IMG/VR virus record: IMGVR_UViG_3300028410_000014
Location: 1 to 53,869 of that record
Source of the DNA: a virus
Direction: 5' to 3' (one strand)
Length of the DNA: 53,869 bases
Shown: in pieces, positions 1,556-53,300 of the stretch
Position numbering within the stretch: the stretch's first letter is position 1
Layout: every line of letters begins with the position of its first letter
Made by a program: the position numbers and the translations under genes
Notes under the pieces: generated by a model
What the model saw: only the letters and a program-made list of their open reading frames with translations
The model's database searches: none
What the model was told of the DNA's origin: nothing

Positions 1556-1839
1556 TATTTTAACGCCTCGTCAGCAAGTTTCAGCAAAGGCTCAATCTTC
1601 TCTATCTTCTCATCAAGCCTCGTAACAGCACAGACCAACGCGTCGTGCAAGTTGTCAGAGTCTTCATTGAAGATTGTGCCCATTTCAATGAAGACTTGTC
1701 CCTCTGACTTATTGAGAAACTGCAGCTTGCCACTGAAGGCCCCGGTCTCGTTAAGTGTGGCATGTATTGCCATATTATATTTAGCCTTAAGGCGTAATAG
1801 CCTTTCGTACTCGGCAATCGCGTCTTTTAACTTTTTCAT
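1555..1839 (-). CDS. Hypothetical helical protein, 94 aa
   Basis: Small, strongly helical and charged protein (starts MKKLKDAIAEYERLLRLK, ends with LDEKIEKIEPLLKLADEALK). Likely a helical hairpin; function unknown. Stop and start are shared by overlap with the neighbours on both sides. Confidence 0.7.
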   Translation of the reverse strand: MKKLKDAIAEYERLLRLKAKYNMAIHATLNETGAFSGKLQFLNKSEGQVFIEMGTIFNEDSDNLHDALVCAVTRLDEKIEKIEPLLKLADEALK

Positions 1840-2036
1840 TTGTATTCCTCATAAGCAAGTTTTATGAAAAGTGCAGCAAAGATGCCTAATGACAATATCA
1901 TAATTGCCAAAATTGTTTTCGGAAAAGTTGCAACCAAAGCACCTAAGACAAAAGCACCTAGTGTTATCAGTGAGGCTCCGCCTGTGAACGTAATTGCTGC
2001 ATTTTTTCTCCACATTCTCTCAAGTAATTCTATCAT
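1836..2036 (-). CDS. Small two-helix membrane protein, 66 aa
   Basis: Two hydrophobic segments, about residues 16-36 and 40-58 (ILAIMILSLGIFAALFIKL), separated by a short turn with a proline and lysine. A short positive N-terminus precedes them. Start ATG at 2036 overlaps the reverse transcriptase stop by 4 nt. That coupling makes it a candidate functional partner of the transcriptase, but this is inference only. Confidence 0.7.
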   Translation of the reverse strand: MIELLERMWRKNAAITFTGGASLITLGAFVLGALVATFPKTILAIMILSLGIFAALFIKLAYEEYK

Positions 2037-3937
2037 AAGCGACTCATGCTGTAGTTGAACAGTTCATATTTTTCTCCCGGAAGTACAGGAGGCAGCTTCA
2101 CTTCAAAATTAAACATAGACAATTGCCCTCTGCGATACTGCCTTTTAATAATACCGGCAATAAATCGCGACTTATTGGGATTGTCTGACAGCAATCGCAG
2201 CGCGCTATCCACTACTACTTGCGCCTCTCCCGAGTTTTTGGTGCGAACTAAGTAAAGGTATTGCAGAGTGCTCAAAATTGGCCACTGTAACCCTGGACGA
2301 AACCAGTCAAAGCTGAACTCAAACTGCTTGTAGCGCATGATATAAAATTCAATGTCATTGGCATCCATATCTCTCTTGATCATATGCGCATTGTCGCGAA
2401 TTGTTTCCTCGTATGTTTTTGACAAATTGTAAAAATACGTAGCTCTTTTAACACCTATGAAGTTGTGCCCGTTCTCGTTCTTGATGTAATTAACGTCCAT
2501 CATTTCAGTTATGCTGTCTCCATGGTGTGTTGCCATCTTGACAATAGCAATCATCACAGGCTTTTCAAGAATACTCTGAACGGGTGTCAGGATAATATCT
2601 CTGCCGTTTGCTTCAAAACACTCAAGTTTGTCCCTGTAGCTATGCAGCACAAGGCTGTACACCAAGTTGACCTGAGCATCCGTCATTGAAGCTATTGCGA
2701 CATTGAAGCTGCTCATGCCCAGCCTGAAAATGATTTGCTGATAAGAATGCAACAGCTCTTCAGAAAGCTCTTCTGTAAAGTCTTTATTCACCTCCGGTAG
2801 TATGTCAAAATAGTTTATAGTGGGCAGTCTCACCAGACCTTTTAGAGCCAAATCTTGCATCGTGCTTTTAACGCTGGTCTTGGCAGCACTCAGATCAAAC
2901 CCGTAAGTCGCCTTCATAAACATTTTGAAGTCTTCCAGCAAGTCATGAGCCTGATTTTCTCTGCCTTTACAGAAAATATAAATGTCATCAATATATGACA
3001 CAATCTCATAATAGGGATGCCTGCCCATCTTCTCTTTGGAAGTGTTGATAAACTCAGTCAGCATTTGCCCCATCAGAATGTTGGCGAGGTAATGCTGGTA
3101 ATTACTCTCAATGGTGAGACCATTTTTAGCGTCTGCTGGATCCCCATCTTTATCAATGTATGTGAACTTCAGCAAATTTCCCAAGAAAATAGCTTCCTTG
3201 GACGATCCGAACAATTTTGAGAATATCTTGACAAGCTCCTCAATCTTGATATTGCTGAAGTACTTAACGAGATCCGTTGCCACCAAATGCGTGCTTTCTT
3301 TTCTCAGTTTTTTGCAGTGCTGTTCCATCAGATTGTATTCGTGAATGTAGGGGATAAAATCCCCTTTGGACGTTGTGCGCGGGCCGTATACGTGTACCTT
3401 TTCACTTACATTCTCGTTTAACCACTGGGCAATTGTGCGAGAGCGCCTGTGCAGCATAGAAGCAATCAACATCTCGTTGAGGGCCGGTTTCATAACAAAC
3501 TCGCGCACCTCTTCAGTGGCTTTGTCCGAGTTTTTCGGCACCGAGCGGCTCTTTCGAAAGGCCACCAGAGGCCCAACCTCCGCCAAAAATGTCTGGGCCT
3601 GACTCAGGGCATCCTGCAGCCGAGAAGCGTTGGAGAGGTGATACACACGTCCGTTAAGGGTGACCGATGCGCTGGTCAGCTTGTTTCTTGTGATGTCGCC
3701 GAAGGTCATCTTCAGCAAATTAGCCACGGCTTCTCTGTATTCTTCAATTACATACTCAATGCTGTAGCTGTTCTCCACGGCTTTGTTCACCAGGGCACAG
3801 AACTCCCTGCTGTTGAAGTGGATACGTTCAAATTCACTTAAGTGATCATACTGAATGCTGTGTTTCACATTGTGCTCCAGACTCTCACGGCCTTCGCGCA
3901 AAGAAAATGTTGTGAACAAGCTTGAATATCTAGACAT
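2033..3937 (-). CDS. Phage-encoded reverse transcriptase, long helical C-terminus
   Basis: A 634-aa protein with an RT palm. Motif A is VATDLVKYFSNI (Asp222); the motif B region is NGLTIESNYQHYLAN (about 272-286), where GL and LAN match the usual pattern; motif C is SYIDDIYIF (YIDD, Asp317-318). Fingers-like sequence lies at about 150-215. The last ~270 residues are helical and match no maturase, thumb or nuclease domain I recognise. It is not a diversity-generating RT: the expected SQ in motif B is missing and no template or variable repeats were seen. It is not a group II intron RT or a retron (no ncRNA recognised). The architecture is closest to abortive-infection and unknown-group RTs (AbiA/AbiK/DRT-like). 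Those act against phages, so here it may serve superinfection exclusion or replication. It overlaps genes on both sides. Confidence 0.85.
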   Translation of the reverse strand: MSRYSSLFTTFSLREGRESLEHNVKHSIQYDHLSEFERIHFNSREFCALVNKAVENSYSIEYVIEEYREAVANLLKMTFGDITRNKLTSASVTLNGRVYHLSNASRLQDALSQAQTFLAEVGPLVAFRKSRSVPKNSDKATEEVREFVMKPALNEMLIASMLHRRSRTIAQWLNENVSEKVHVYGPRTTSKGDFIPYIHEYNLMEQHCKKLRKESTHLVATDLVKYFSNIKIEELVKIFSKLFGSSKEAIFLGNLLKFTYIDKDGDPADAKNGLTIESNYQHYLANILMGQMLTEFINTSKEKMGRHPYYEIVSYIDDIYIFCKGRENQAHDLLEDFKMFMKATYGFDLSAAKTSVKSTMQDLALKGLVRLPTINYFDILPEVNKDFTEELSEELLHSYQQIIFRLGMSSFNVAIASMTDAQVNLVYSLVLHSYRDKLECFEANGRDIILTPVQSILEKPVMIAIVKMATHHGDSITEMMDVNYIKNENGHNFIGVKRATYFYNLSKTYEETIRDNAHMIKRDMDANDIEFYIMRYKQFEFSFDWFRPGLQWPILSTLQYLYLVRTKNSGEAQVVVDSALRLLSDNPNKSRFIAGIIKRQYRRGQLSMFNFEVKLPPVLPGEKYELFNYSMSRL

Positions 3938-14901: not shown

Positions 14902-17541
14902 TCACAAGATGTCGACTGCGGCAATTTTAGTTCCTTTTTCTGTTTTGTTGAAGGATTCTTCACTTGCTTTTTCCTCAATAAAATCTACTGCAGTCATTCG
15001 GCCTGTTGACGGAATAAATCGAAGACCTGCAACTCTGCCTGTTAAGCCGATTGTCCTGGCTTTCAGCACTGCCATGTCTATCGTGTTTCTGTCTGTCTCT
15101 GACTCGGCTGTCATGTTTCTTGCAAAGGCCACTATGTCAAATGAGATTTGCTTTATGGAGCCTGAGTTATGGGTGATGGTATGGTTGCCTAAAAGAAAAC
15201 GTCCATTGCCGTTAAGCACAAAACCATAGTAGTCTTGTACATCCAGGGCTTCAACAGTGATGCCTCTCTTCAGCGCATTGGTCTGTCTATCAACTTTGTT
15301 AATTTTCTGCGTAGGAATTTTATCAATATCCCCAGAGATCATAACTTGAAATATCTCAGAACCATTTGAAGAATAATCACCTGAAATTATCTGAGACCTC
15401 ACAGTACTGTAAAGACCCAGAGATCTTGCAATGCTTTTCACTGTTTTTGCAAGCTCTTTATCTTTCTGGTAGAAATAGAAATGACTGTCACGTGTTGAAT
15501 AAGAGCCATCTGTATCAAGCAAGCCTGCAAGAAGCTCTAGTCGCTGTGCTCTGCTGGCATATTGATAAGCTGAAGGAATATGTTTATTTTTAAACAAGTC
15601 AAGGTTTTTCAGCTTGTTAAGCATTTCTCCTTTTGTTTCTGTTATGAAGTTGAAATATTCTTTGTTGACATTTTTTGGGCTCCCTAAGACTGCGCCGAGC
15701 TCATTAGCTACTCTTTCAACAATACCTATGCGAGCTGCGTCCATGATTCTGAAAGCTGATTTAGAACCATCGCCGAGCCAAGCGCCTAGAGAGTAAGGCG
15801 GGATAAGAAGCTCTTGATGGGGTAAATCATAACCTCCGCTGTAGTGCTGCTTACATCTGTATTGAAAGCTGTCACTTTTGTTTAAGAAATCTTTCACAGA
15901 AATATTAAATAATTTGTCATTATGCGACAATGTCAAGACATGGTCTTCATTACAAATGAAAGAATCATTTGAGGTTTTTGTCACCACTCTGTACATTTGC
16001 TGCGAGCCTCGCCTTAATTTTAAAATCTGCCTAGGCTGACCGTTGTCACCAATTAGGCAATCTCCGACTTTTAAATTTTGAACTGCTTCAGAAGTGCCGT
16101 TCGAAAGCAAGACTTTTGTGTCTCTAGCAAGGCATCCTTTTATATCATCCAGAGAAGGCAGTCTTCCTTCTTCGAATGACTTTTTGTCGTTAGGCGTTTT
16201 GCGTAGATGCGACACAAGACCGATCCATACGTCAGGATAGCGCTTCACAATACGCAGCAAGTCGTTCATTATTTTATCTTGTGCTTCATTACCTTGCAAG
16301 TTTTCTGCCCCTTCCGATACAAGTATCGTGATGTGGTCAATGAAAATTTTCTTGCAGCCAACCAAGCACATATATTCTATGCGATCGATTATACTGCCGT
16401 CATTTGCAGAGCCTTGATGATCTAATAGCTCTACTCTGTCGCCTTCAAAGACTTCATTAAAGCCGACTTCAAGATCTTCTAGAGAAATCTCTTCCAGGGC
16501 TTTATTACGCTTCAGCTGCATACTTGCAAGAGACTTACCGGTCTCACCGGGGGCTTCTTCCAAGCTTATTACGCCAATCTTCTCCTTAGATGTCGCCAGG
16601 ATATGCAAGATTATTTCTCGCATTATTGTACTTTTACCCGAACCTGTGCCGGAGATGAATAGCGTAATCTCTCCGCCGCGCATGCCTTTAAGCTTACTGT
16701 TGAGACCGGCAAGACAAGGCGGAAATGGAATTGAAACAACTTTACTTGCTGCTACAATTGCTTCCCATATAGCAGTTCGCTTTATGATCCCGGAGGGTAC
16801 AAACGTAGTTGCGTCAAAGATACATTGAAGTAGCTCTTTGCCACCCATTTCGACAAGCACGTTATTTGCATCATTTTTCGGGAGTTTTGTGACACGCGCT
16901 TTATCGTAACCAATGATTCTTATAGCTTCTTTTTGTGCCTTCAAGCCTGCGTCGTCTTCATCAAAACAAATCACAACTTCTTGAAAAGAGCGAATCCAAG
17001 AGCGATGCTCTACAAGGTGCTCTGCCATTGCGGAAGAAGAAATACCTACTATTGGGTAAAACTTATTGTATCTTTGATGGGATGCCTCGGCTACTGCAAG
17101 AGTATCGCATTCACCTTCGCATATAATTAAACGCTTGCCACCGCCGTTAAAGTGTTCCATACCGAATAGGGACTTGGAACCAGACGGTGTCCATTGAAAC
17201 TCTTTGGGGAGTTTGCGGATTTTATAATGTGTTTCTTTTTCATAGGGGTAGTAATGTGTGTCAATATTACCGTCTGAATTGTAAGAAACTTTCACATTGT
17301 AAAAAGCACAGACTGCTTTGGTAATAGCTCTTGCTTCAAAGCCTCTTGTTGCGTATGTCTTTATCTCTTCTGGATCTATCCTTTTAGGACTGTACATTCT
17401 GGGTGCTGGCTTGACTGCTTCATCAGATTTAAAACTTTTGTCACATGAGAAGCATTTTGAACCGCCGTCTTCATATATCTGACGTGCATCAGTTGAGTCA
17501 CAAGCCAAGCAGGGCTGATTTCGCTTGACGATTTTGCCCAT
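14902..17541 (-). CDS. Primase-helicase (T7 gp4-like) with in-frame intein
   Basis: The 879-aa precursor gives a 556-aa mature protein after removal of a 323-aa intein. In order: a Cys4 zinc ribbon (CLACDSTD, then CFSCDKSF) at the N-terminus; a TOPRIM primase core (LIICEGECDTLAVAEA and VVICFDEDDAGLKA); a DnaB/RecA-type helicase with Walker A GTGSGKST, motif H1a (VISLEEAPGET), Walker B (KKIFIDHITIL) and H3 (WIGLVSHLRK). The intein splits motif H4, between DIKG and SGSIKQISFD (compare T7 RGSGALRQLSD). The mature enzyme should unwind the fork and prime Okazaki fragments with the polymerase at 19905-21779. The C-terminus is short and acidic, ending AAVDIL. Confidence 0.95.
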   Translation of the reverse strand: MGKIVKRNQPCLACDSTDARQIYEDGGSKCFSCDKSFKSDEAVKPAPRMYSPKRIDPEEIKTYATRGFEARAITKAVCAFYNVKVSYNSDGNIDTHYYPYEKETHYKIRKLPKEFQWTPSGSKSLFGMEHFNGGGKRLIICEGECDTLAVAEASHQRYNKFYPIVGISSSAMAEHLVEHRSWIRSFQEVVICFDEDDAGLKAQKEAIRIIGYDKARVTKLPKNDANNVLVEMGGKELLQCIFDATTFVPSGIIKRTAIWEAIVAASKVVSIPFPPCLAGLNSKLKGMRGGEITLFISGTGSGKSTIMREIILHILATSKEKIGVISLEEAPGETGKSLASMQLKRNKALEEISLEDLEVGFNEVFEGDRVELLDHQGSANDGSIIDRIEYMCLVGCKKIFIDHITILVSEGAENLQGNEAQDKIMNDLLRIVKRYPDVWIGLVSHLRKTPNDKKSFEEGRLPSLDDIKGCLARDTKVLLSNGTSEAVQNLKVGDCLIGDNGQPRQILKLRRGSQQMYRVVTKTSNDSFICNEDHVLTLSHNDKLFNISVKDFLNKSDSFQYRCKQHYSGGYDLPHQELLIPPYSLGAWLGDGSKSAFRIMDAARIGIVERVANELGAVLGSPKNVNKEYFNFITETKGEMLNKLKNLDLFKNKHIPSAYQYASRAQRLELLAGLLDTDGSYSTRDSHFYFYQKDKELAKTVKSIARSLGLYSTVRSQIISGDYSSNGSEIFQVMISGDIDKIPTQKINKVDRQTNALKRGITVEALDVQDYYGFVLNGNGRFLLGNHTITHNSGSIKQISFDIVAFARNMTAESETDRNTIDMAVLKARTIGLTGRVAGLRFIPSTGRMTAVDFIEEKASEESFNKTEKGTKIAAVDIL
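15166..16134 (-). other. Intein with LAGLIDADG homing endonuclease
   Basis: A 323-codon in-frame insertion inside the helicase. The first residue is Cys (CLARDTKVLLSNG, splicing block A), block B is NEDHVLTLS, and the C-terminal block is GRFLLGNHTITHN followed by Ser as the +1 extein residue; the terminal Asn and penultimate His are intact. Two dodecapeptide motifs, LGAWLGDGS and LLAGLLDTDGSY, keep their acidic residues, so endonuclease activity is possible. It should self-splice to restore KG-SG in helicase motif H4, a conserved site typical of inteins. Confidence 0.95.
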
Positions 17542-42500: not shown

Positions 42501-45101
42501 GGCAGCGCTTAAAGCCGATTGAATTTTTGGGCCTAAGCCTTGAAATATGTCGGCAACCTTAGTGGCAAAATTACGGAGACCGTCATAAAGAGAGTTGAGC
42601 TTCCCGCCTACACCGGCAACTGAAGGCACCAATATCTCGGGCACACTTACAGAGCGGGCTTGCAACCTTTCACCGACGCCTGCGTAGACTTCTGAAAATA
42701 GCTTAAGTACTTTGCTGCGGAACTTCAACAAACCTACAGAAACACGCTCCCACAAATTACGGCTGTACTCTACAACACCGTCAATAGTATCAGGCCAGTA
42801 GGAGTTACCTACTACTTTATCATATATATCAAAGAAAGCATCTTTAATTTTCTCGGCAAAAGAAATCACTTTCTCTAATACTAGAGGTAGCCCGTTTTTG
42901 ACTACGGCGTATATACTGTCAGTTAAATCTCTGAATGTTAAAGATAGTCCTCTCAAAATTATTATGGGAGTGGCTATTGCTGCGGCAATTGCGGCCAACA
43001 CGCGACTCAAACCACCTAAGTCGCCCACTACGCTGCTGATACCCTCAGAGAAGCTGTTAACAATGCCTAAAAAGCCACCGCTTTCGGCCATTGCTGAAAC
43101 GCCGGTGCTCCATGCGCCGGAGCCAAAGGAAGACATCTTGGATAGTAATGAGTCCAATTCGCCCATATTTTCCTTAACAACACTGACAAAGCCTACAAAT
43201 ATGCTGCCTGCTACGTTCTTAAGTTTCACTGCGTAGGCAATTACGCCGTCAACCATATCAGGCCAGTAGGAGTTACCTACTACTTTATCATATATGTCAA
43301 GAAAGGTGCCTTTGATACTGTCACCAAAGCTTGATATAAAGGACTGTACTCTTCCAAGGCCACTTTTTGTTTTGCTAAAAATATTACCGACCATACTGTC
43401 AAATGCCGATTCTATCACTTTCGTATACTTGGCGACTTTTGTGAACTTGAGAAACTCAAGCGCAATGTCTTTAAACAGTTTTGACAGAGATGTTACGGGA
43501 ACCCAGTCAGCTATTATTGTGGCCAACATTTTGACTGCCTTCACAGCGCTTGCCGCCATTGCTTCAATGACAGCCATGATGACCTTTGGCAATGACTGTA
43601 AGACATCTCCCAAAAATGTAAACACGTTAAACAAGGAAGGCGCCCACATGTCAAAAATAAGACGAGATGCCTTGTAAAAAGGAACGGACAGGCCTGTTAT
43701 GCCTTTGCCTATTTGTGCAAGAGATACGAAAAAGGTTTCGAGGAAACCTGTCTTTATCGATATCAAGGCGTTGTCAGTTAAGCCAATGTACCTGAGCGCA
43801 GACTTAAAGCTGTTATCTACGTTTATAAATGTTCTGCGAAGTACTGTACCTATTGTGTTTGTGTTGCCGGCCAATGCAACCGCCAAATCACCGAAAGCGT
43901 CTCCGTATAATTTCAGGTTTCTGACTGAAAAAATTTCTTTTATCGTCTCTACGTCAAAACCGGCGGCTGCCCAATTGCGAGGACTGAGTCGTCTTATCTG
44001 GCGAAGCGCTAATTCTACATCGCTTTCTATGTTAATGAAGTCAACGAGACGTATCTGTTTAAAGGAGGTAATGGCACCACCCAGAAAACTCCGGTCGATA
44101 TCCCGTATTATAGAATTCAGGTCTTCAGACAATGTATCTGTGAAAGAAATGTCCGGTATGATTCTGAGGAAGTACTCTCCCATAGTTTTAAAGGAGTTTC
44201 CCAAAGGCTTACTGATCACTTCTATCATCTGTTGCGCTGTTTGTAGCGCAAACATGAATCTGTTGCCCATTTCAAAAGCGCCGTCTGCGGCATCACTTAT
44301 GCCGTCGGCAAAACGGAAAGTGCCTCGAGTAATAGCAGCGGTCAGGTTGAGACCTTTGTCCAATTCCGATGTGTAAATTGACATCGAATCTTTGAGGTAG
44401 CCACCGGCCTCTCCTATTGTGGGCGCCAGCGCCTCAAACTCTTTAGATATGGCAGCACTCTCACGAACAAGCGCACCGAAAACTTCTCTATCTGTCAATT
44501 TACCTTGTTCGGCCAAGCTTTTAAGACTGCTCTTTGCAACACCCATGCCGTCGGCAATAGCTTCTGCAACACGAGGCAGCTGCTCCATAACTGACATCAA
44601 TTCTTGACCGCGAAGCGCACCTGCAGCAAGACCTTGGCCCAGCTGTATAATAGCCGCGTTAGCAGACTCAGCGTCTGTGCCATATATTGCGATGCTTTGT
44701 TGAATGGCCTTTGTGGCCACCAAAATCTCAGACATTGGTTTGCCGGTGCCTTTGAGCGATCTGCCGAATGCACCGAAGGTTTCAACGGAGCTTTGTATGC
44801 TGCTGCGTGTGTCTCTGGCTATTTTATACAATTCTTTTTGAGCTAATATTAACTCATTTGTGCGCCCTGTTACAGATGCTATCTTGTTTTCAAGATTAGA
44901 GAAATTATTTGAAACTCTGAATAGCGCGTTGCCACCCAGTCCCACCGTCGCAATTGCGGCAATACTTCTTACGACTCTGCCAATGGACTTGCCAGCTGAA
45001 AGCGCAGAAGACTCTATATTACCAAGAGACTTATTAACATCCTGTAACTCTCGTGTAGCGCGGTCCGCATTGGCTTTGACGTCTATGAATACACCAGACA
45101 T
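36501..45101 (-). CDS. Tape measure protein, 2866 aa
   Basis: The largest gene. The N-terminal ~230 residues match the tape-measure start (KSLGNIESSALSAGK, SNNFSNLENKIASVTGRTNE, FGRSLKGTGKPMSEI). Several hydrophobic stretches occupy about residues 1000-1650, and a Gly-rich C-terminus ends in the usual FAxGGxVxGPGTGTSDSIP motif for insertion or assembly. A motif DKVVGNSYWPDxxDGV occurs twice (about residues 600 and 770). It sets tail length and is injected during infection. At about 0.15 nm per residue, 2866 aa predicts a tail of some 400 nm, which is long. Confidence 0.95.
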   Translation of the reverse strand: MSGVFIDVKANADRATRELQDVNKSLGNIESSALSAGKSIGRVVRSIAAIATVGLGGNALFRVSNNFSNLENKIASVTGRTNELILAQKELYKIARDTRSSIQSSVETFGAFGRSLKGTGKPMSEILVATKAIQQSIAIYGTDAESANAAIIQLGQGLAAGALRGQELMSVMEQLPRVAEAIADGMGVAKSSLKSLAEQGKLTDREVFGALVRESAAISKEFEALAPTIGEAGGYLKDSMSIYTSELDKGLNLTAAITRGTFRFADGISDAADGAFEMGNRFMFALQTAQQMIEVISKPLGNSFKTMGEYFLRIIPDISFTDTLSEDLNSIIRDIDRSFLGGAITSFKQIRLVDFINIESDVELALRQIRRLSPRNWAAAGFDVETIKEIFSVRNLKLYGDAFGDLAVALAGNTNTIGTVLRRTFINVDNSFKSALRYIGLTDNALISIKTGFLETFFVSLAQIGKGITGLSVPFYKASRLIFDMWAPSLFNVFTFLGDVLQSLPKVIMAVIEAMAASAVKAVKMLATIIADWVPVTSLSKLFKDIALEFLKFTKVAKYTKVIESAFDSMVGNIFSKTKSGLGRVQSFISSFGDSIKGTFLDIYDKVVGNSYWPDMVDGVIAYAVKLKNVAGSIFVGFVSVVKENMGELDSLLSKMSSFGSGAWSTGVSAMAESGGFLGIVNSFSEGISSVVGDLGGLSRVLAAIAAAIATPIIILRGLSLTFRDLTDSIYAVVKNGLPLVLEKVISFAEKIKDAFFDIYDKVVGNSYWPDTIDGVVEYSRNLWERVSVGLLKFRSKVLKLFSEVYAGVGERLQARSVSVPEILVPSVAGVGGKLNSLYDGLRNFATKVADIFQGLGPKIQSALSAALSFAAAAITVGLLRGDVAGQFRARIIAVAASIAFSLSNNLSEKLFGGSFASVLGEAVGKFIGGTLAALFDALPEILNAASSFFSSLTQGLAKELPIIGGLLTGILNIAGKFSSALPGALGLIGTYFLGTKLIPALLSDDSWKKTIGKILAAGKAMITGSGGGILSRYLFGPLGLTRSLSGIGLALTMFGAIDGIFMDSVLLEYATKGGLLYLFLAGEGGLTNVKQLVAKYLGRPLISAVESVLSTSGLGRKFSDVLFGSVGTFGQRAVDNFGPILTGFTTSITTTLSSYVGTGLTWVQGVLLGPNPRRTMAKIELLVRGGMDKISIALRDFSRSPIFASIGRAFSGMFGGRNGAGGSSGVLGALTGLLSNITASLTRFARSITFRAGPDGFLGALFLRGPAAIKNKIVDFLALMRGKFAAFSAYVNRLGGPMGSLGRLLIGRAGRAALIAAIVAGSLFAGKAFASDKDEGDVPDIKPDKSVLDSLVDDWASLKISNPFQAMAYQIAAVTLPSIVAAFYIFRARIGALLLATFSGSIIQDWARRARTAATRTQRAFGSALGGTVGALAGYFGGGAEGAIMGGTIGATIGSSIITGIITKLATVPWIMTIGAMISGAFLAAVPIMLAGIAVLAVTAVGLAVAGAALVWLFGTGDDFNEKLDKAIARTREFFNLEAKSPSVDARTGLKTEVASRAKNLGIEQDFNLSRLNRSNLPERTLEKLNDRLEEYSKLILEASENQMSGKEDKTLMKRIQTSNRGLERQVSKAVSASVYSTEEFRNTIEDLSKQEGKTSIFTASQQFFDQIGLDAVYAINMWLANSFNSADIRERLESQKDKEFNAGYTAPGQVENIKMLTDLSKEYDAGEKPNAVLNAQIDNIRAKYIELFRELREEQDKGFFSARVVDNDSPLMKNLEHAAETAGMLMRQGIEEGLRLVDTRLLNNQLQNLFTSLKDFGVEAQETQFLSDIDLQELKTFLNFMENIKLTLETDARNVDIQNNLKADMKRIVKSAQNVIDDSIDSNPNLSISMVASMRVSSVDLGLSPEIISSMSDGLGNRVNDTITELRDTDDSVANGTLSAAGATILKSLKKYRTLTGVAKEGKIDALKEVAEMVNVDFNQIYRNDGLQAVRDATIEGLTLQGKGVRAAASENEENYSLFERNFLSFTDRMNRAVLTAPNLMSALGDGMSKGFEEASFRGIDSSGLQTLKDAGLAIQIADDGIKNLGSNFSALDLKKLLTDKFIAASAAIKVTTAVMAKLPQGVIAALNSAGFSTYKAMNRLSKEATDTFVGIESELQVVEAELKGLTVGTEKYYTAMKRLAILEASRDRLSALAGNSLADQNNVVGSVLQGGFSDREFAMVDSKLRSLLFRFSSAAKEAFDNFAANAQDSAQKSLNLFGVISAIDSQTEILKLGKDLKISLAQSAYEGLGEGFARAQNAIGEITIAQFAKVSKASRDKYKADSKAIEQLRKVAEAGLTNEQQDILLTYDKTNAEEVVAAIAASAKLSLKELLTQITPSSEFQDMKTSVDLNTDALGFVRDALYKFAGVEVPEALKPVTKETGAAPKSLETGDRNTSSVFRDLDVAEASLTSGITKKAFGGIEGSLRNLIIASDDAGKSLDISTLRLASDSDRKKLEGLIGELNALDTSGMNPRAIEQARLGFEREVDNILKGVTRLTDGMRSAGQAMSDGIRGSIKTGLTALMTGENKSFTSFFESLANTFTLGVIEAFTQGIADQLISGVTDGFLKKINEGQYGLGSQVAEGATGLFSGWGDDGETTVPTKEMIESGYRDAEGFFANMGTQFLAMGNTATESFFAPLGRSFVALAKGIGGMLTEMFSGGGGGGVDFFGAIMKIGAGVAGAWGGGGTDAFIDSGVLTEFELQNFASGGLVTGPGTGTSDSIPTMLSNREFVVNARDTQKNLGLLTALNSGKSISKFAKGGQVGRVSKPTYISNDKMSPKSSSQQIFNVNITGDISRQTKAEIYKMLPSIAQGVNKQNREVGNRS

Positions 45102-50334: not shown

Positions 50335-53300
50335 TTAACCGACGCCATACCAAGCGCGGTCTTTAGTGAAGCCTTCAGGGATCTTCTCTAAAATATCTAA
50401 AGCCTTAAGTATGTCATCATCTGTAAGCAATTTCCCACCTACGCGTGACCTACCGGCTACAGGTATCAAACCTATGTCAATAGCTTCTTCCCTGAACTTG
50501 TTGTAGACTTCCCTGGGTAGACCTCGTTTAAGCATTTCTTTCAGTGTCATCTCAATGACATTGTCTTTGAGAACTTCTGCGTATATTTCACGAAGCCCTT
50601 CTCGTGCTTGTGTCATGACTGCTGCGTTAGCGAAGAACGCATCATGTATAGTGCTTGTTGGAACATTGTTCTTCTTGCCCCATAAGTGAAACTTCTTTAC
50701 GATAACTGCGTCATTGGAGTGATTCGTTGTGTTAAGAGGAAGGCGTGACGTTCCTCCGTCCTATAAATTCAACTTTGCAAATTCACCGTGATGTACTTTA
50801 GCCATTTCATCATATGTGCCTGCAGCTTCAAGCTCACTTTCAAATTGAATTTATAGAATCCTACATGTTACCATGCAGACCAGACTATATCTTACATCCA
50901 TTGTGGACGTCTCCGCGCTTCGAACTCACTTGAGCTCTACAAGTCTCATATCCCGTTTTGGGATGTACACTCTAGTCGTTGCACCTTCAAACCCATTCCT
51001 GGGTAAGCTTGGCTCAGGATTGTCCACTTGGGAGTTCCCCTGAATTCACGGAGTTTTATAACGGCAATTACTTACCGTTTACTGCGTAGGCTGTCCTGGC
51101 TCTTGTGGCATCAGCAATATCATTTATCTTACCTGACTCACCTGTTGCAACATCCCACCACCCGGCCTCAGTCTTCTGATCCACTTGCACTATGCTGGTG
51201 ATCATCTTGCCGTTCTTGTCACGATACATCAGCTTCTCTTCAAACGACTGCGTGAAGTTCTGCTCTATTGTCTTACCGTCAAAGTTCACCCAAGGCACAT
51301 TTGTCCAACTCTTCGGGAGCTTATTGGCGTAAAGCAATTCAACACCGTCTGAGATTGTCTTTCCGAGAAACTTACGCTTTAATATGACAGTACCTGTTCT
51401 GCGATTGCCTGACGGGTCACTTCCGAAGATGATCTCTGACATTGCGTTCATCTTGTTCCAAAAAGGAAGCCTCTCAACAAAGTCTTTGAGATATAACTTA
51501 CTGGGATCAAGTCCCAAGGCGGAAGCCACACCAGTAGGGAGCTTGGTGCCTTTTCTCACACTGCCTACAGTTGCCGCTTTAAATATCTCCTTGAAGTCAA
51601 ACGCGGCTGAGGACGGCTTAGCGTTTGTGAGATACGCCTGTGCCAACCTGCCAAAGAACTTTGTGAAGTCCTTAAGTATAGGCACCTGTTCAGACAGCTG
51701 CGCAGACATGATCTTTGCGATTGTCTTAAAGTCATCAGGTGTGACTACTTTGTTGTAACTGCGTGACATCTTCTCCACAAGATCTTTTGTCTGAGAGTCA
51801 AGGAACCACAACTGATCCATTATGTCAACACCGGGATCTGTGCCTTTATTGAACACATCTCGGACGTCTGTGCGAAGTGCCCTCAAACGTGCTGCCATCT
51901 CAGGATCAAAGCGATCATATCTGGCGGCTCTGGCAGAGATCTCATTCAGCACTGTGTCCCGATCAGCTGCTTTTACAACCAATGTGTCACCGTATTTTCC
52001 CAGAGCTTTACCTAACTTACCTTCGACATTGAATATGCCGGTCTTCTCACCAGCGCCGTATAAAGTACTGTTATTAACTAAGGTCGCTAAGCTTAGCCAG
52101 ACAAAGTGCCTGCTGCATGTCGCCATGCAGATTAGACTATATCTTACATCCATTGTGGATGTCTCCGCGCTTTGAGCTCGCTTGAGCCCTACGGGTTTCA
52201 TAACCAGTTAAGGTCGTTTACCCTAGTCGTTGAACCTTCAAATGTGTTTCCACATGAGCTTGGCTGCTGATTATCTCTTAGAGACGTCCCAGCAATTCAC
52301 GGAGTTTATACATGGCCACTTTAACCATGTTTTGCATTACGTTAAACACAAGCGCTACCCTGTGCTGGCTTTCACCCTGCATGTCGCCATGCAGATCAGA
52401 CTATATCATCACCTGTTTAGGTGTCCTGCGCTTCGGATTCGCTTGAACCCTACGGACTTCATCTGCCGTTCTGGCCGGTATGCCCTAGTCGTTGCACCTT
52501 CAAGTCCCTTCCGGGACGAGCTTGGCTCAGGATTGTCTCAAAGAGATGTCCCCTGAATTCACAGGATTTTAAAAGGCCCAATTTAAGCCTTTGCTGCCTT
52601 ACGTAAGTCGCGTTCTGTCAAGCCTAACCTCTCATTCAGCTCCCTAAACACAGGATCATTGAATGTTGCTGCAGCTATTTCATCGTACCTTTGCTTTCAA
52701 CTATAATCGTTACATATAGCCGGTTCTCTGATGAACTCCTATATGTCGCCATATAGACAAGACTATATCATCACCTTCATAGGTGTCCCGAGCTTCGAGC
52801 TCACTTGAGCCCTACGGATTTCATCCACCGTTCTGGCGGGTATATCCTAGTCGTTGAACCTTCAAACCCATTCCTGGGTAAGCTTGGCTGCTGATTATCT
52901 CTTAGAGACGTCCCAGCAATTCACGGGATTTTACAAGGCCGTACAGCCTTCGCTTCTGATTTGTGGGAACTACGTTAGAAAGCTCCGCCAACTGTTTGTT
53001 GCGGGTTGTCAAGGCAATGATCTGAGCACCTGACGAAGAAGCATCCTGCTCCAGGGCGAGTCCTGTTTTGTAGTTTACAAGGTTGTTTAGAGATTCTTTA
53101 GAATAGAAGTCAGTTAAGGCTACACTTCGCATGTCTTTGTCAGTTAAATACTGTACATTTAATATTCTGTTAGACTTAATGGCTGACTGTATTCGGTGCA
53201 ATCCATCTACAATCACTTGACGCCCGTTTGTCTCCCAGATCAAGACAGGTGCATTCATATCAGGTGGCGTATTGCGTACTTCTAGCTTAGTATTGACTTG

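What the first reader, a model, noticed from the sequence alone, without database searches (positions are those of the whole stretch)
2033..3937. Standalone phage reverse transcriptase of the abortive-infection/unknown-group type
A full RT palm with YIDD is followed by a long uncharacterised helical region. No DGR repeats, group II intron or retron RNA were seen. Related RTs are usually bacterial anti-phage genes; a copy in a lytic phage may exclude competitors or act in a new process. It is coupled to a two-helix membrane protein gene (1836-2036), which may be its partner.
Basis: partly seen in the sequence, partly recalled or inferred. Interest (0 to 1): 0.8.

Follow-up and report, generated by a model that had tools for sequence, protein, structure and literature searches.

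The report
Orphan reverse transcriptase of lytic phages
This phage carries an intact, actively maintained reverse transcriptase that belongs to none of the catalogued bacterial families and is otherwise known only in one sister phage and, unrecognised, in the giant Yersinia phage phiR1-37; it may be a phage weapon or takeover enzyme that makes DNA, but that is untested.

Summary
Window 2033-3937 (minus strand) encodes a 634-aa protein with a catalytically complete reverse transcriptase (RT) palm (D222, YIDD 315-318) and a C-terminal region that matches no family. It is not a diversity-generating retroelement, retron or group II intron RT. The 'Abi/unknown-group' label is only partly right. Against every AbiA/AbiK/Abi-P2/DRT/UG model it scores 35 bits at most (46 for its homologue), where real members score 380-804 bits. 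In trees it forms its own clade (support 97-99/96-98) of three proteins: this one, a 90% identical one in a sister contig, and g096 of jumbo Yersinia phage phiR1-37 (27%, annotated 'hypothetical'). The position of that clade among RTs is unresolved. All three share a motif 4 not seen elsewhere, GLTIES..QH, in place of the usual G-x-P-x-G. Selection maintains the protein (dN/dS 0.21); residues 416-520 diverge fastest. The proposed membrane-protein partner is not supported: its gene is frameshifted in the sister phage, absent beside phiR1-37 g096, and 'coupled' like every gene in this operon. Best guess: a free-standing, Abi/DRT-like DNA polymerase used against competitors or the host. The RT lineage is well shown; the mechanism is inferred.

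The parts
2033..3937 (-). Orphan reverse transcriptase gene, 634 aa
   Evidence: ORF; RVT_1 40.2 bits; orthologue 90% identical in L001, homologue phiR1-37 g096 27%; dN/dS 0.21
3503..3541 (-). Motif 1/2 region VPKNSDKAT..R (residues 133-145), invariant in the family
3251..3274 (-). RT motif 3 DLVKYFSN with catalytic D222
3092..3121 (-). Unusual RT motif 4: GLTIESNYQH (residues 273-282) in place of G-x-P-x-G..S; only the sister contig and phiR1-37 carry the encoded pattern in the scan of 2.9 million viral contigs
   Evidence: alignment; pattern scan
2984..2995 (-). RT motif 5 YIDD (residues 315-318)
2810..2812 (-). Invariant Y376 in the segment joining palm and C-terminal region; candidate priming tyrosine (inferred by position from AbiA)
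   Evidence: comparison with PMC11077055
2036..2797 (-). C-terminal region (residues 381-634), no family match, predicted helical at low confidence; residues 416-520 diverge fastest
1836..2036 (-). 66-aa two-helix membrane protein ORF downstream: examined and not supported as an obligate partner
   Evidence: 13-nt deletion and frameshift in L001; no such gene beside g096

Best explanation
The gene encodes a free-standing reverse-transcriptase-type DNA polymerase of an undescribed lineage carried by lytic phages. Its layout, a large N-terminal fingers region, an RT palm and a separate C-terminal region with no group II maturase domain and no companion RNA, is most like the Abi/DRT polymerases. 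The most likely mode of action is that it is made with other small proteins of the operon, starts DNA synthesis on itself (a tyrosine primer) or on a captured nucleic acid, and the product or the act of synthesis harms a competing phage or disables a host process, to the benefit of the resident phage. Shown: RT fold, intact catalytic residues, purifying selection, orphan lineage, presence in two unrelated phage types. Inferred: DNA polymerase activity, protein priming, lack of a template RNA. Guessed: use in competition or takeover.
For: RT: (palm aligns to solved RTs at Z 13-17, mostly rmsd 3-4 A over 190-260 residues). Own clade: 97/96 and 99/98. Abi/DRT-like layout: Foldseek ranks AbiA, UG15/DRT4 and Abi-P2 first, with the AbiA alignments running over most of the protein although no Abi sequence was put into the input alignment. 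No X/maturase domain, no ncRNA, no DGR repeats. Gene-packed operon leaves no room for an ncRNA. Conserved tyrosines where Abi/DRT primers lie: Y376 in the palm-to-helical linker (AbiA Y298/Y303, PMC11077055), Y629 near the C-terminus (DRT3b Y666, PMC13174585), Y30 near the N-terminus (an AbiK Y44F variant is among the structures). Two unrelated phage types carry it; no tyrosine integrase.
Against: Sequence links to Abi/UG are weak: 35-46 bits at most, the C-terminal region matches no Abi model, and profile comparison ranks group II RT above UG9, DGR and class 1 Abi (UG9 itself behaves the same way). The whole-RT-domain tree puts it outside class 1 Abi; palm-only support beside UG/Abi is only 74/60. 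Foldseek superpositions with AbiA have rmsd 20-28 A, so only the palm is well matched. No functional data; no defence-gene neighbourhood.
Confidence: 0.45

Rival explanations
1. The RT serves the phage's own programme (host takeover, RNA processing, copying a phage or host RNA into DNA) and has nothing to do with competitors.
For: Kept by selection in a small-gene operon, and in the giant phage phiR1-37 near structural and RNA polymerase genes rather than a defence island. Motif 4 differs from all defence RTs examined.
Against: Absent from the nearest sequenced phages DSS3_VP1/PM1, which share RNA and DNA polymerase at 34-36%, so it is not a core replication gene.
Confidence: 0.25
2. It is a counter-defence protein: an RT look-alike that titrates dNTPs, ncRNA or partners of host DRT or retron systems.
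For: RT-based defences are common and phages carry counter-defences (general knowledge); the middle of the C-terminal region diverges fastest.
Against: A decoy need not keep the whole catalytic set, which is invariant between phages at 27% identity.
Confidence: 0.12
3. A free-standing group II type RT/maturase acting in trans on ORF-less introns.
For: Highest single model score is the group II RT model, 45-46 bits, and best profile comparison is with group II RTs.
Against: No group II intron RNA in this phage, the sister contig or phiR1-37; no maturase domain; score far below the cut-off of 300; AU test p 0.042 against a clade with group II.
Confidence: 0.04
4. It helps phage group I introns spread by reverse-transcribing reverse-spliced RNA.
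For: All three records with this RT hold group I introns above the Rfam cut-off, four of them packed in 2.1 kb here, against 1 of 33 other phage records from an RT-motif scan.
Against: Only two independent lineages; DNA similar to this intron-rich stretch occurs in 367 phage records, nearly all of which lack this RT.
Confidence: 0.03
5. An ordinary DGR or retron RT whose RNA was missed.
For: The AU test alone does not exclude joining DGR or retron rows.
Against: No repeats, no ncRNA space, no retron model above 21 bits where a phage retron RT scores 135; C-terminal 250 aa absent from the DGR and retron RTs compared.
Confidence: 0.03

Closest known systems
phiR1-37 g096 (Yersinia jumbo phage, YP_004934330.1, 'hypothetical protein')
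   Same: Homologous along the protein: SIQYDH, VPKNSDKAT, YIHEY, GLTIES..QH, Y-x-DD, LVRLP...YFDI and C-terminal blocks conserved
   Different: 27% identity, 690 aa, single gene with its own promoter and terminator, other phage type
UG/Abi (DRT) reverse transcriptases: AbiA, Abi-P2, AbiK, UG15/DRT4, DRT6, UG21, UG9
   Same: RT palm, large N-terminal part, long C-terminal region without a maturase domain; top structural matches
   Different: Profile scores an order of magnitude below real members; C-terminal region not alignable; motif 4 changed; found only in phages so far
Group II intron RT/maturase
   Same: Closest palm sequence by profile
   Different: No X domain, no intron RNA, 45 bits against a cut-off of 300
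DGR reverse transcriptases of phages
   Same: Phage-borne RT palm
   Different: About 250 aa longer at the C-terminus; no TR/VR repeats

Membership tests
Reverse transcriptases (RVT_1) | RT motifs with catalytic aspartates | tested here: met
   RVT_1 40.2 bits above 29.6; D222, D317, D318 align with those of the other RTs
AbiA | Match to the AbiA model above its cut-off | tested here: not met
   22.6 bits, 30.4 in L001, against 250
Modelled UG/DRT/AbiK/Abi-P2 groups (PADLOC) | Score to one group's model like that of its members | tested here: not met
   Best 34.5 bits (45.8 for g096) against 380-804 for real members and mostly 50-330 between related groups
UG/Abi superfamily in the wide sense | Branches with UG/Abi RTs | tested here: inconclusive
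   Beside UG9 and class 1 at 74/60 in the palm tree, outside class 1 at 99/97 in the wider one
Class 1 UG/Abi | C-terminal alpha-helical (alphaRep) domain replacing the thumb | tested here: inconclusive
   No sequence match; model helical but under pLDDT 60 for most of the region; Foldseek alignments to Abi structures span it with high rmsd
Class 1 UG/Abi | Untemplated, protein-primed DNA synthesis | not testable with these tools
   Candidate tyrosines only
DGR | Template and variable repeats near the RT | tested here: not met
   No such repeat pair
Retron | msr-msd RNA beside an RT that matches retron models | tested here: not met
   No intergenic space; retron-type models at most 20.5 bits against 135 for a phage retron RT
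Group II intron RT | Intron RNA around the gene and maturase domain; model score over 300 | tested here: not met
   No RF00029 match, no maturase domain, 45 bits

The most novel reading that the evidence does not exclude
A reverse transcriptase class private to lytic phages, with its own chemistry: the dNTP/template loop of motif 4 (P-Q-G in most RTs) is T-I-E, invariant between phages at 27% identity, so it may make DNA in a way not seen in Abi, DRT, retron or DGR enzymes and serve the phage itself rather than bacterial defence.
Probability: 0.3. Interest if true: 0.8.

Novelty: new variant of a known kind. Interest (0 to 1): 0.55.

Why it matters
RTs in bacteria turn out to make surprising DNA products in immunity. 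An orphan RT kept by lytic phages, including an isolated model jumbo phage, makes it directly testable whether phages have taken up this chemistry as a weapon or for takeover. phiR1-37 can be grown and g096 deleted or purified.

Tried and rejected
AlphaFold with the three family members failed (pLDDT 31); adding 41 phage RTs gave a good palm but a poor C-terminal region. VIA-align did not separate RT classes (Z 13-17 for all). Peptide-pattern scans of genomes and viral contigs, and tblastn of phages and plasmids gave no further member; the pattern scans can miss diverged ones. Retron-type RTs of Staphylococcus jumbo phages looked like kin at first but score as retrons. The membrane-protein partner was rejected, though the sister's reading frame could still start internally at a GTG. 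DGR, retron and group II readings were rejected. A group I intron link was considered and kept as a minor rival only. The key UG/Abi classification paper (gkac467) was not held, so group definitions rest on PADLOC models. The reference set for the trees was small and lacked UG21, UG20, UG32 and UG33 sequences.

Full report
OBSERVATION. The ORF at 2033-3937 lies on the minus strand, starts with ATG and encodes 634 aa. Pfam RVT_1 matches residues 204-357 at 40.2 bits, above its cut-off. Motif 3 (D222), motif 5 (YIDD, 315-318) and motif 6 (K353) are intact. Downstream, overlapping by 4 nt, is a 66-aa ORF (1836-2036) with two hydrophobic stretches. Every gene pair around it overlaps by 1-8 nt, so this overlap carries no special meaning.

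RELATIVES. tblastn against 50,697 phage records found one homologue, g096 of Yersinia jumbo phage phiR1-37, 27% identity over 57%, annotated hypothetical. Alignment shows homology also outside that stretch, towards the C-terminus. IMG/VR gave a 30.7-kb sister contig with a 90% identical copy (L001). No match in plasmids nor, by peptide patterns, in 84,980 bacterial and archaeal genomes; patterns on several conserved blocks found only the sister contig and phiR1-37 in IMG/VR (the window's own record may be left out of such scans). The first structural hit among predicted viral proteins is a 690-aa protein, G4KK35, the length of g096; I infer that it is g096. I found no paper in the held library that names an RT in phiR1-37.

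THE PHAGE. The window is a 53.9-kb virus record. Its RNA polymerase and DNA polymerase are closest to phages DSS3_PM1 and DSS3_VP1 (Naomviridae), 34-36%, which lack the RT. No tyrosine integrase was found in the window, the sister or phiR1-37. The sister contig and the window may be incomplete.

IS IT A REAL, USED GENE? Window against L001: dN/dS 0.21 overall; 0.16 for residues 1-130, 0.135 for the RT domain, 0.38 for 381-500, 0.11 for 501-634. Residues 416-520 are only 69% identical, with raised synonymous divergence as well, so recombination may contribute.

WHAT IT IS NOT. DGR: no repeat pair with the needed form; the long direct repeats in the window are four group I introns and an 86-nt repeat in the tape measure gene. 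Retron: no room for msr-msd and retron model scores of 20.5 bits or less, whereas a Staphylococcus jumbo phage retron RT scores 135. Group II: no intron RNA in three records, no maturase domain, 45 bits against a cut-off of 300. Rfam in the first 12 kb, permissive: nothing credible.

IS IT UG/ABI? As a calibration, reference RTs were scored with the same models: Abi-P2, Drt6, Drt3b and UG9 members score 380-804 bits to their own group and mostly 50-330 bits to related groups. The window RT reaches 34.5 bits and g096 45.8 bits (UG21 for both). It is therefore not a member of a modelled group. A profile of the family hits group II RT structures in the PDB by sequence (E 1e-6) but none of the Abi/DRT structures that are there (their presence is shown). 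Profile-profile comparison ranks group II > UG9 > DGR > class 1, but UG9, a true UG group, shows the same order, so this order says little about kinship. In a tree of the RT domain the three proteins form one clade (97/96), apart from class 1 Abi (99/97 split; there motif 1/2 of g096 was partly cut off). In a tree of the palm with a better alignment they again form one clade (99/98), now beside UG9 and class 1 Abi at weak support (74/60); the AU test does not reject joins with class 1, UG9, DGR or retron, and gives p 0.042 for group II. Position: unresolved.

STRUCTURE. With three sequences AlphaFold failed (pLDDT 31). With 41 phage RTs added (none of them an Abi reference), the palm reached pLDDT about 90, residues 41-80 and 551-620 about 50-73, and the ends, residues 80-148 and 435-550 mostly under 50. 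Foldseek against the PDB ranked AbiA, UG15/DRT4 and Abi-P2 first (E 2.6e-8 to 3.5e-8), closely followed by group II RT (1.2e-7); AbiA alignments run over 548-670 columns but with rmsd 20-28 A. VIA-align gives ties among DRT6, DRT2, group II, Abi-P2 and DGR (Z 15.6-16.9). This favours, weakly, an Abi/DRT-like layout. The C-terminal region alone matches nothing in PADLOC and nothing above cut-off in Pfam; [quoted passage not shown]

AN UNUSUAL ACTIVE SITE. In motif 4 other RTs show G-x-P-x-G or close variants (AbiK GIPTG, Abi-P2 GIPQG or GIPLG, Drt6 GLPVG, Drt3b GIIVG, UG9 GLPQN, group II GVPQG). The family has GLTIES..QH, with Glu in the place of the usual Gly, identical in both phage types. 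In HIV-1 RT the corresponding Gln-Gly contacts the incoming nucleotide and template (general knowledge). The DNA pattern for this motif was found nowhere else in 2.9 million viral contigs.

MECHANISM (INFERRED). Abi enzymes start DNA on their own tyrosines: AbiA on Y298/Y303 in the loop between RT and helical domain (PMC11077055), DRT3b on Y666 at its C-terminus (PMC13174585). The family keeps tyrosines at the comparable places: Y376 (YFDI, linker), Y629 (C-terminus) and Y30 (SIQYDH, N-terminus). With no RNA partner in sight I propose a self-primed, template-free or captured-template DNA polymerase, used against competitors or the host. The first step (RT) is shown; priming and product are inference; the purpose is a guess.

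PARTNER. In L001 the membrane ORF has a 13-nt deletion that shifts the frame after its first codons; only a shorter product from an internal GTG would remain. L001 also carries an extra small ORF between the RT and the upstream gene. phiR1-37 g096 stands alone between promoter and terminator, next to a head protease. No fixed partner.

VERDICT. A sound observation and a real, undescribed RT lineage in lytic phages.

Noticed in passing
window 50861-51083, 52113-52355, 52377-52596, 52739-52990 (minus strand): Four short group I introns without ORFs (Rfam 68-80 bits) within 2.1 kb, 60-85% alike, breaking up one late gene whose last exon resembles the end of a single-subunit RNA polymerase (17.7 bits, below cut-off), perhaps a virion RNA polymerase. 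The sister contig has two such introns.
   Followed up: partly
window 14902-17541 (minus strand): Intein with LAGLIDADG homing endonuclease inside the primase-helicase (Hom_end_hint 70 bits, LAGLIDADG_3 32 bits).
   Followed up: partly
L111 6361-9933 (Staphylococcus phage MarsHill; also S6 and UFV_DC4): Jumbo Staphylococcus phages carry a retron-type RT (PADLOC II-A 135 bits) behind a 1.24-kb stretch without annotated genes and followed at once by a 274-aa unknown gene: a likely phage-borne retron.
   Followed up: partly
G031 (IMG/VR record of L082, 71,310 bp): Another phage record with four group I introns over the cut-off, three within 2.7 kb, with an RT that looks like the DGR-type phage RTs.
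   Followed up: no
window 42775-42860 and 43243-43328: An 86-nt direct repeat (80% identical) inside the giant tape-measure gene.
   Followed up: no
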